NCBI GenBank assembly: GCA_020723345.1
Contig: DYJA01000015.1
Location: forward strand, 1 to 64,000
Direction: 5' to 3'
Length of the DNA: 64,000 nucleotides
Origin: Candidatus Aquidulcis sp.
GTDB taxonomy: Bacteria; Chloroflexota; Anaerolineae; UBA4142
Shown: positions 1 through 1,814 of the stretch, piece after piece
Layout of the letters: the number at the start of each line of letters is the position of its first letter
How positions within the stretch are numbered: the stretch's first letter is position 1
The notes under the pieces: model-generated
The model's input: the letters and a program-made list of their open reading frames with translations, nothing else
Database searches by the model: none
Told to the model about the DNA's origin: nothing
Translations under genes and position numbers: made by a program

Positions 1-72
1 TAGGACAAATTTGCAAATTTGTCCAACTACCTGACATCTGGATCCGTAGGACAAATTTCCAAATTTGTCCTA
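1..72. repeat. Two copies of an AT-rich palindrome upstream of the RT gene
   Basis: Positions 3-24 form a perfect 22-nt palindrome (GGACAAATTT, GC, AAATTTGTCC), and 47-72 is a near copy with CC at the centre. A third copy lies at 46125-46148. The second copy ends 10 nt before the RT start codon. They could be operator, hairpin or REP-like elements; the sequence does not decide. Confidence 0.7.
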
Positions 73-81
73 CCACCGACC

Positions 82-1164
82 ATGAAAACCTACAACCATC
101 TGTACGAACAGATCTACGCGTTCGAAAATCTGTTGAACGCGTTCGACCAAGCCAAACGGCACAAACGGATGAAACCGTACGTCGCGGAATTCGAGTACAA
201 TCTGGAACACAATCTGCTGGAACTGCAACGCGATCTGCAAAACGAAACGTACCAGCCCGGCGCGTACACCAATTTCCAAATCTACGAACCCAAACAACGC
301 CTCATCAGCGCCGCGCCGTTCCGCGACCGCGTCGTCCACCACGCGCTCTGCAATATCATCGAGCCGATCTGGGAGGCGCGTTTTATCCACGACAGTTACG
401 CGTGCCGCAAAAACAAGGGAACGCATCGCGCCATCGTCCGCGCGAGCGAATGGGTCAAGCAGTACCGCTACGCGCTGAAAGGCGACATCGTCCGGTTCTT
501 TCCCAGCATTGACCACGCGATCCTGCTCGAAATTCTGCGCGGCAAGATTGCGGACGCGCGCGCGTTGAATCTCGCCGCGCGGATTCTTGCGAGCGGGGAA
601 GGCATTTTGGCGAGCGAGTATCCGATGCGCTGGTTTCCCGGCGACGATCTCTTTGCGGTCAATCGCCCGCGCGGTCTGCCGATTGGCAACCTCACGAGCC
701 AATTCTGGGGCAACGTGTATCTGAACGAACTCGACCAATTCGTCAAGCGCGAACTGAAATGCGCCGCGTACCTGCGCTACGCCGATGACTTTTTGCTTTG
801 CGGCGACGACAAAGCGCGGTTGTGGGAATGGCTCGCCGCGATCCAAAAATTTCTCGAACGCGTGCGCCTCGTCGCGCATCCGCGCAAATCCACCGTGCTG
901 GCGACGCGCGGCGGCGTGGACTGGCTCGGCTTTCGTCTGTTTCCAACGCACCGGCGATTGCGCCGCGCCAACGTGCGCCGCGCGTTTCGCCGCTTGAAGG
1001 CGCAGCGCGCCGCGTACGCGCGCGGCGCACTCACTGGCGCGCAACTCGACGCGTCGATCATCAGTTGGGTCGCGCACGCGCGCTGGGGCGACACGTACGG
1101 CTTGCGCCAACGCGTGCTCAGCCAAACCGCGTTTGCGCGGGAGCGACTCCCTAATGCCAAATGA
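82..1164 (+). CDS. DGR-type reverse transcriptase
   Basis: RNA-directed DNA polymerase of 360 residues with the hallmarks of diversity-generating retroelement RTs. Visible motifs are KGDIVRFFPSID (about residues 133-144, first catalytic Asp), LPIGNLTSQ (about 199-207, the IGxxxSQ form typical of DGR RTs instead of QGxxxSP) and YADD (about 233-236). WLGFRLFP follows in the thumb region. The open frame extends upstream to a TTG at 19, but the ATG at 82 matches the family N-terminus (MKTYNHLYEQI). The gene overlaps the Avd gene by 11 nt, and an adenine-rich template-repeat-like segment follows. In the known mechanism the RT copies the template RNA with adenine mutagenesis and the cDNA replaces the variable repeat of a target gene. 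No target gene is visible here; it may lie left of base 1. Confidence 0.92.
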   Translation: MKTYNHLYEQIYAFENLLNAFDQAKRHKRMKPYVAEFEYNLEHNLLELQRDLQNETYQPGAYTNFQIYEPKQRLISAAPFRDRVVHHALCNIIEPIWEARFIHDSYACRKNKGTHRAIVRASEWVKQYRYALKGDIVRFFPSIDHAILLEILRGKIADARALNLAARILASGEGILASEYPMRWFPGDDLFAVNRPRGLPIGNLTSQFWGNVYLNELDQFVKRELKCAAYLRYADDFLLCGDDKARLWEWLAAIQKFLERVRLVAHPRKSTVLATRGGVDWLGFRLFPTHRRLRRANVRRAFRRLKAQRAAYARGALTGAQLDASIISWVAHARWGDTYGLRQRVLSQTAFARERLPNAK

Positions 1165-1507
1165 TTACACTGTGACCATCTACACCAAAACGTACGACTT
1201 GCTCGCATGGCTTTTTCCCCTGACCGCGAAATTTCCGAAAGAACAGCGCTTCGTACTGGCGCAGCGGCTCATCGACGCGGCAACGGAGTTGTACGAACTG
1301 CTCATCACCGCGCGGCGAACCAAGCCCGCCGAGGCGCGGCGCGAGATTCTCGCGCAAGCCGACGTCAGGTTAGAGCAACTGCGTTTGTATTTTCGTTTGT
1401 CCAAAGATTTAAAGTTGATCAGCATCCCGCAGTACGAGCAGAGCGCGCAACGCACCGACGAGATCGGTCGTTTGCTGGGCGATCAAATCAAGCGCGCGCA
1501 GACCTGA
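1154..1507 (+). CDS. avd: Avd-like four-helix-bundle accessory protein of the DGR
   Basis: Basic, helical protein of 117 residues. The pattern (YDLLAWLFPLTAKFPKEQRF near the N-terminus, then LRLYFRLSKDLKLIS and QYEQSAQRTDEIGRLLGDQIK) is that of the DGR accessory variability determinant, a pentameric helical barrel that binds RT and template RNA. The start ATG at 1154 lies inside the end of the RT gene, so the two are translationally coupled. The C-terminal codons run into the left arm of a 23-bp hairpin. Similar four-helix-bundle proteins occur as 23S rRNA intervening-sequence proteins, but position beside a DGR RT favours Avd. Confidence 0.88.
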   Translation: MPNDYTVTIYTKTYDLLAWLFPLTAKFPKEQRFVLAQRLIDAATELYELLITARRTKPAEARREILAQADVRLEQLRLYFRLSKDLKLISIPQYEQSAQRTDEIGRLLGDQIKRAQT

Positions 1508-1542
1508 CAGGTTTTCCCGAACCTGTCAGGTCTGCGCGCGCT
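1491..1542. repeat. Perfect 23-bp inverted repeat between avd and the template repeat
   Basis: Bases 1491-1513 are exactly complementary to 1520-1542, leaving a 6-nt loop (TTCCCG). The avd stop codon (1505-1507) lies in the left arm. No U-tract follows, so it is not a classical terminator. It could protect the 3' end of the avd message or structure the template RNA that begins right after it. Confidence 0.8.
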
Positions 1543-1645
1543 GGGGCAAGGTCAATCAGCGTTTCGGCGCGCAATAATTGGAACCGCAACAACGACAACC
1601 ACAACAACGGGTTTCGAGTGTTCGCCCAGTCGTTTGCACGCGTGA
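1543..1645 (+). other. DGR template repeat (TR), approximate limits
   Basis: The stretch 1573-1608 is packed with AAC/AAT triplets and would read R-N-N-W-N-R-N-N-D-N-H-N-N followed by GFRVF. This is the usual adenine-rich core plus GFRV end of DGR template/variable repeats that encode a C-type-lectin-like ligand surface. It sits directly downstream of RT and avd, where a TR can lie. Adenines here would be the positions randomised in the variable repeat. The limits are uncertain because no variable repeat is in the window to align with. No adenine-substituted copy was found on either strand. Confidence 0.7.
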
Positions 1646-1748
1646 TCGGTAATGCGCGCGCTCCACGGAGTCCGCGCCGAGGTCACCGGGAAAACTACAG
1701 ACCTGCGCCCCGGGTTGGGCATGGTTCCGCTCAGCCAAATAAATAACC

Positions 1749-1814
1749 GTCCCGCCCCCTGTGGTAATCCTTCGCATCTTGAGCGCAGTCGAAGGATGAC
1801 GCTTGGGGCGGGAC
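1749..1814. repeat. Inverted repeat with nested REP-like core
   Basis: A 10-bp outer stem (GTCCCGCCCC at 1749-1758 with its complement at 1805-1814) encloses a second inverted pair (CCTTCG and CGAAGG). The inner sequence resembles REP-like cores near 20830-20890, 25500-25530 and inside the wzt fragments. It lies between the template repeat and the IS66 remnant. Confidence 0.6.

What the first reader, a model, noticed from the sequence alone, without database searches (positions are those of the whole stretch)
82..1645. Diversity-generating retroelement with RT, Avd and template repeat; target gene outside the window
DGR-type RT (IGxxxSQ, YADD), overlapping Avd, and an AAC-rich segment reading N-N-W-N-R-N-N-D-N-H-N-N-GFRV are in the order RT-avd-TR. 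No variable repeat is found in the 64 kb, so the diversified protein is most likely just left of base 1 or at a remote site.
Basis: partly seen in the sequence, partly recalled or inferred. Interest (0 to 1): 0.75.

Follow-up and report, generated by a model that had tools for sequence, protein, structure and literature searches.

The report
Gene-mutating retroelement aimed at immune sensor
This is a real diversity-generating retroelement: a bacterial reverse transcriptase cassette that rewrites the tip of a large immune-receptor-like protein encoded just beyond the left edge of the window, and its template RNA appears to carry a conserved folded tail.

Summary
RT (82-1164), overlapping Avd (1154-1507) and an AAC-rich template repeat (TR, 1559-1635) form a diversity-generating retroelement (DGR). 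Base 1 of the window is the end of contig C9. The missing variable repeat (VR) is 96 bases from the right end of contig C43, whose last 45 bases equal the first 45 of the window; a relative keeps target gene and RT on one contig. TR and VR differ at 8 of 18 template adenines and 1 of 56 other bases, plus one lost codon. The VR ends a 1472-codon frame with an AAA_16 (STAND-like) domain, a NACHT domain and a C-terminal formylglycine-enzyme-like (FGE) domain. The genome holds three more DGRs; all six VRs end FGE domains of NACHT or TIR proteins. This fits the DGRs of multicellular bacteria described by Doré et al. 2024, so the locus is a new member of a known kind. The less expected part is a conserved three-hairpin RNA at 1643-1814, directly after the TR: 26 of 26 pairs covary, no Rfam family reaches its gathering score there, and no match was found around the TR of phage BPP-1. 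Searching with its model also uncovered RT-less VR-TR-RNA cassettes in related genomes.

The parts
82..1164 (+). DGR reverse transcriptase (360 aa, IGNLTSQ, YADD)
   Evidence: 54-55% identical to the RTs of the three other DGRs of this genome
1154..1507 (+). Avd accessory protein (117 aa), overlapping the RT end by 11 bases
   Evidence: NF033474 DivGenRetAVD 93.9 bits over cut-off 80; PF22296 bAvd
1559..1635 (+). template repeat (TR): stretch shared with the VR at C43:58962-59035
1643..1814 (+). conserved three-hairpin RNA element 3' of the TR, read here as the template-RNA tail (counterpart of the BPP-1 spacer Sp)
   Evidence: covariation; model R1 104.9 bits
1654..1677 (+). hairpin P1 of the RNA element (arms 1654-1663 and 1668-1677)
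   Evidence: positions counted by hand from the alignment
1713..1736 (+). hairpin P2 (GGTTG with CAGCC, read by eye; alignment shifted by 1-2 bases in this row)
1749..1814 (+). hairpin P3 (10-bp stem, arms 1749-1758 and 1805-1814, GGTA..GAC inner loop)
1..81 (+). intergenic stretch between target gene and RT: bases 1-45 overlap the end of C43; two copies of a dispersed palindrome (GGACAAATTTGCAAATTTGTCC type)
1493..1540 (.). dispersed palindrome (ACCTGACAGGT...ACCTGTCAGGT) between Avd and TR; MITE/REP-like, probably not part of the mechanism

Best explanation
A chromosomal DGR of the order target(VR)-RT-Avd-TR-RNA tail. Inferred mechanism: an RNA running through the TR and its folded tail (1559-1814) is bound by RT and Avd; RT copies the TR, misincorporates opposite adenines, and the cDNA replaces the VR at the 3' end of the target gene about 135 bases upstream of the RT. 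This randomises mostly Asn codons on the C-terminal FGE (C-type-lectin-like) domain. The target carries AAA_16 (STAND-like) and NACHT domains, so the variable face is most likely the sensor of an immune, probably abortive, receptor. Shown: intact RT and Avd, TR/VR pair, adenine bias, contig overlap, synteny in a relative, domain make-up, covarying RNA. Inferred: activity, priming from the tail, sensing, defence.
For: TR/VR changes: 8 of 18 adenines vs 1 of 56 other bases, Fisher p 2.3e-5; six TR/VR pairs of the genome pooled, 101 of 175 vs 11 of 541, p 3e-61. Contig overlap of 45 bases and synteny in G003. The complete cassette B on C66 has the same order, VR, RT, Avd, TR. In the 34 related loci with a TR after the RT, TR starts 357-732 bases after it; in 31 the VR ends 56-338 bases before the RT, the exceptions being L105, L107 and L125. 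RT-strand adenine-template pairs in 59 of 80 related loci, against 8 (C), 20 (G) and 13 (T). Target domains. RNA tail: 26 of 26 pairs with compensatory change, 82.7% of cells paired vs 37.0-47.6% when slid, 148 double changes vs 50.6 shuffled.
Against: The overlap lies in dispersed repeats, and C43 and C9 are separate contigs, so adjacency is very likely, not proven. This TR is short, and its VR has lost one codon and has one non-adenine change (making the stop codon). No reads were available, so present activity is untested. In G003 the orthologous cassette lacks the RT end, Avd and most of the TR (decay or assembly error).
Confidence: 0.95

Rival explanations
1. The cassette is a DGR that has stopped working: RT, Avd and TR persist but the VR is frozen.
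For: Dispersed palindromes flank RT and TR; the relative G003 carries a damaged version; the VR lost a codon.
Against: RT and Avd are intact; no non-adenine mismatch inside the aligned 74 bases except at the stop codon; the RNA tail keeps 104.9 bits, third best of 81 matches.
Confidence: 0.2
2. The RT is a group II intron, retron or defence (DRT) RT and the TR resemblance is accidental.
For: HMM hits to TIGR04416 group II RT (147.7 bits, below its cut-off of 300) and to DRT/UG RT models.
Against: No curated cut-off of those models is reached; DGR-specific Avd passes its own; best PDB hit 8ub7 by about 40 orders of magnitude; adenine-specific TR/VR pair; no Rfam intron family at E up to 1 in 1-2300.
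Confidence: 0.01
3. The 1643-1814 hairpins are only a transcription terminator, not a template-RNA domain bound by RT and Avd.
For: The element lies at the 3' end of the cassette; P3 is a GC-rich hairpin and some relatives have a T run after it.
Against: Three hairpins and conserved unpaired motifs (GCCAAATA, GGTA/GA) covary together or are conserved across the clade; the terminator scan found none on the + strand; the element also follows the TR in cassettes where the RT lies downstream (e.g. L089, L102, L140) and in RT-less ones.
Confidence: 0.15

Closest known systems
Clade 5 DGRs of multicellular bacteria (Doré et al. 2024, PMC10907252; abstract, section 7 and passages read)
   Same: Several related DGRs in one genome; STAND/NACHT and TIR targets with a C-terminal C-type-lectin domain; filamentous Chloroflexi among the hosts; MITE-like palindromes at the loci; trans action proposed.
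   Different: RT clade not placed on their tree here. Their main text has no hit for DUF4062, spacer, Rfam or 'TR RNA'; its two 'secondary structure' passages concern MITE-like repeats and methods.
BPP-1 phage DGR (Mtd; mechanism recalled, and as summarised in PMC12875486, passages read)
   Same: RT, Avd, TR with a 3' spacer RNA, VR at the 3' end of a C-type-lectin-fold gene.
   Different: Order mtd(VR)-avd-TR-Sp-brt; RNA model R1 finds nothing convincing there (best 2.4 bits); target is a phage tail protein.
DUF4062 TIR-like NADases (PMC13174449, abstract read)
   Same: Two of the six DGR targets of this genome start with DUF4062 and two with TIR.
   Different: The window's own target has no recognised N-terminal effector; the sensor here is a DGR-varied FGE domain.

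Membership tests
Diversity-generating retroelement | DGR-type reverse transcriptase | tested here: met
   8ub7 best hit E 1.3e-56; IGNLTSQ and YADD
Diversity-generating retroelement | Accessory protein Avd | tested here: met
   NF033474 93.9 bits over cut-off 80
Diversity-generating retroelement | TR/VR pair differing almost only at template adenines | tested here: met
   8 of 18 A, 1 of 56 other, one 3-base gap
Diversity-generating retroelement | VR at the 3' end of a C-type-lectin/FGE-fold gene | tested here: met
   FGE-sulfatase PF03781 E 5e-35 at residues 1205-1469 of 1472
Diversity-generating retroelement | IMH at the VR end differing from IMH* at the TR end | tested here: inconclusive
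   Single C-to-A difference just after the shared stretch; function cannot be tested here
Diversity-generating retroelement | Mutagenic retrohoming activity | not testable with these tools
   needs reads or an assay
Clade 5 (multicellular-bacterial) DGR | RT falls in clade 5 of the DGR tree | tested here: inconclusive
   No reference tree run; close RTs come from Chloroploca, Accumulibacter, Nitrosomonas, groups that Doré et al. name or cite; 1 viral relative found
Clade 5 (multicellular-bacterial) DGR | STAND/TIR conflict-system targets | tested here: met
   six of six targets in this genome carry NACHT or TIR plus FGE
Group II intron | Intron RNA and group II maturase | tested here: not met
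   TIGR04416 below cut-off; no intron RNA in Rfam search

The most novel reading that the evidence does not exclude
The three-hairpin element after the TR is an undescribed RNA family: a clade-wide template-RNA handle, distinct from the phage BPP-1 spacer, that suffices to mark an RNA as template. RT-less cassettes (VR-TR-element, some with Avd) in relatives are then non-autonomous DGRs served in trans by RTs elsewhere in the cell, which RT-anchored DGR finders would miss.
Probability: 0.45. Interest if true: 0.7.

Novelty: new member of a known kind. Interest (0 to 1): 0.48.

Why it matters
It places a complete DGR-varied STAND receptor locus in this genome and shows how contig breaks at repeats separate cassette from target. 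The covarying RNA gives a search handle independent of the RT, which already finds cassettes without an RT, and it makes a question testable: what makes an RNA the template that a cellular DGR copies?

Tried and rejected
A palindrome insertion that cut off the 5' part of the TR: rejected. Sequence before 1559 is no more like the VR flank than shuffles (145 of 300 reach the score), and similarly short TRs occur in RT-less cassettes L206 and L212. Rfam: only sub-threshold chance hits. Retron and DRT readings: see rivals. The BPP-1 spacer does not match R1. No more VRs for this TR: BLAST found one, the degenerate pattern only TR and VR.

Limits of the RNA result. R1 was built on 32 sequences, all with the TR after the RT; four loci with a TR after the RT were left out of the alignment by my judgement of poor fit (L080, L107, L127, L144), and L108 was too short. 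Held-out test: 39 of 51 related loci not used for the model match at E 0.01 or better; 12 do not (L086, L100, L106, L108, L122, L126, L130, L132, L133, L136, L143, L157), for reasons not examined. L139 is nearly identical to training locus L138. 24 of those held-out matches have an independently found TR ending 1-186 bases upstream; 15 have none by the strict scan. In the own genome the four DGRs, including held-out D, are the only matches at E below 0.01. In the relatives test all 20 genomes with an RT match (E 1e-60; own genome counted) have an element match at 0.01, as do 8 of the other 40; G054 has only weak matches, away from its RT, and G037's is on another contig than its RT. Several of these genomes look like sources of training loci (equal bit scores), so this test is not independent. 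Alignment A3 was fitted to the model, so its counts lean towards it.

RT-less cassettes: 20 stretches with elements lacking a known neighbouring RT, or extra to it, were fetched and searched with four RTs and four Avds at E 1e-4. L205, L206 and L212 have an adenine-specific TR/VR pair and the element, with no RT and no Avd in 12-14 kb; L211, L213 and L219 have Avd but no RT. L202, L203, L214 and L218 show RT pieces; L209 is a normal cassette with RT and Avd; L204, L207, L208, L210, L215, L216, L217, L220 and L221 showed neither a TR/VR pair nor RT. G012 and G031 were searched for RTs only at E 1e-60.

Papers: five searches that ran plus passages in PMC10907252, PMC8144416 and PMC12875486 showed no description of this RNA element. 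The 2025 Nature paper on the BPP-1 RNA, the 2018 NAR paper on cDNA synthesis and the 2018 NAR DGR survey are not held, so prior description cannot be excluded.

Full report
What is there. The first 1.8 kb of the window hold an intact RT (82-1164), an Avd overlapping it by 11 bases (1154-1507) and an AAC-rich template repeat. The RT's closest solved relative by sequence is 8ub7 (E 1.3e-56), which I recall as the BPP-1 DGR RT complex. Avd passes the NCBIfam DGR-Avd cut-off.

Where the target is. The window is bases 1-64000 of contig C9, so base 1 is a contig end. The only strong match to the TR is C43:58962-59035, 96 bases from C43's right end. C43's last 45 bases equal the window's first 45, and that 45-base match occurs nowhere else in the genome, although its palindromic half is dispersed. 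Joined this way, about 135 bases separate the target's stop codon from the RT. In G003, same family, whose RT is 79% identical, the target orthologue, VR and RT lie in this order on one contig. The complete cassette on C66 has the same order.

Adenine specificity. Window TR against VR: 8 of 18 adenines and 1 of 56 other bases changed, one 3-base gap (Fisher p 2.3e-5). The other five TR/VR pairs of the genome give 14-22 changed of 28-35 adenines against 1-4 of 88-103 other bases; pooled, all six give 101 of 175 vs 11 of 541. In the window the codons go from N N W N R N N D N H N N to Y S W T R - H G T H D H (read): of the codons that hold adenine, eight change, one (CAC) stays and one Asn codon is lost; the codons without adenine stay.

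Four DGRs. RTs lie at C9, C66 and twice on C116, with TRs beside them. VRs: C43 (A), C66 and C107 (B), C128 (C), C100 and C102 (D). Three of the six VRs lie within about 100 bases of a contig end. Targets: A AAA_16+NACHT+FGE; B NACHT+FGE and TIR+FGE; C and D1 DUF4062+NACHT+FGE; D2 TIR+FGE. DUF4062 has been reported as a TIR-like NADase (PMC13174449, abstract), so four of six targets carry a likely NAD-cleaving effector.

The RNA tail. Downstream of the TR in relatives lies a conserved arrangement of three hairpins with a GCCAAATA motif before the last. RNAalifold finds the last stem unaided, all 10 pairs with double changes. With P1 and P2 added by hand, 26 of 26 pairs show compensatory changes in 32 sequences; 82.7% of cells pair against 37.0-47.6% when slid; no shuffle of 500 reaches the observed values. 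The structure was drawn from these same sequences, which favours it on cells paired. Model R1 then finds held-out loci (39 of 51), the held-out fourth DGR of this genome (E 3e-14) and no further place in the genome below E 0.01. Rfam has no family reaching its gathering score there, and BPP-1 does not match. By analogy with BPP-1, where the spacer recruits RT-Avd and primes cDNA (as summarised in PMC12875486, passages), I read it as the template RNA's binding and priming domain; that step is inference.

RT-less cassettes. R1 led to VR-TR-element loci without RT or Avd in the fetched 12-14 kb (L205, L206, L212) and with Avd only (L211, L213, L219), with 14 to 25 of 27 to 36 template adenines changed; the targets of L205, L206 and L212 are NACHT+FGE proteins. 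Doré et al. already proposed trans action between DGR loci of one genome (section 8 passages).

Verdict. As a system it is a new member of a known kind; the RNA element and the RT-less cassettes are the parts worth following.

Noticed in passing
L205 (G031:C368), L206 (G012:C145), L212 (G001:C1): VR-TR-RNA element cassettes with adenine-specific TR/VR pairs and no RT or Avd in the 12-14 kb fetched; targets are NACHT+FGE proteins.
   Followed up: partly
L211, L213, L219: VR-Avd-TR-element cassettes without an RT between VR and Avd.
   Followed up: partly
L197 8400-9860 (G003:C120): Orthologue of this DGR in which the RT end, Avd and most of the TR are missing and the target's FGE domain has lost sequence; real decay or assembly error not resolved.
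   Followed up: partly
L076, L077 (C128, C100): DGR targets combining DUF4062, NACHT and an adenine-varied FGE domain.
   Followed up: partly
window 1-28, 46-73, 1493-1540, 46127: Two families of dispersed palindromes (7 and 8 matches in 307 kb of own-genome sequence held) near several DGR parts; they may explain contig breaks.
   Followed up: partly
window about 1889-2329: Frames that resemble a broken IS66-type transposase start (motif recalled, not searched) just downstream of the RNA element.
   Followed up: no
C107:153973-154725, C119:41316-41984, C102:92713-93429: FGE-domain genes with only short matches to TRs of this genome; former or unassigned DGR targets are possible.
   Followed up: no
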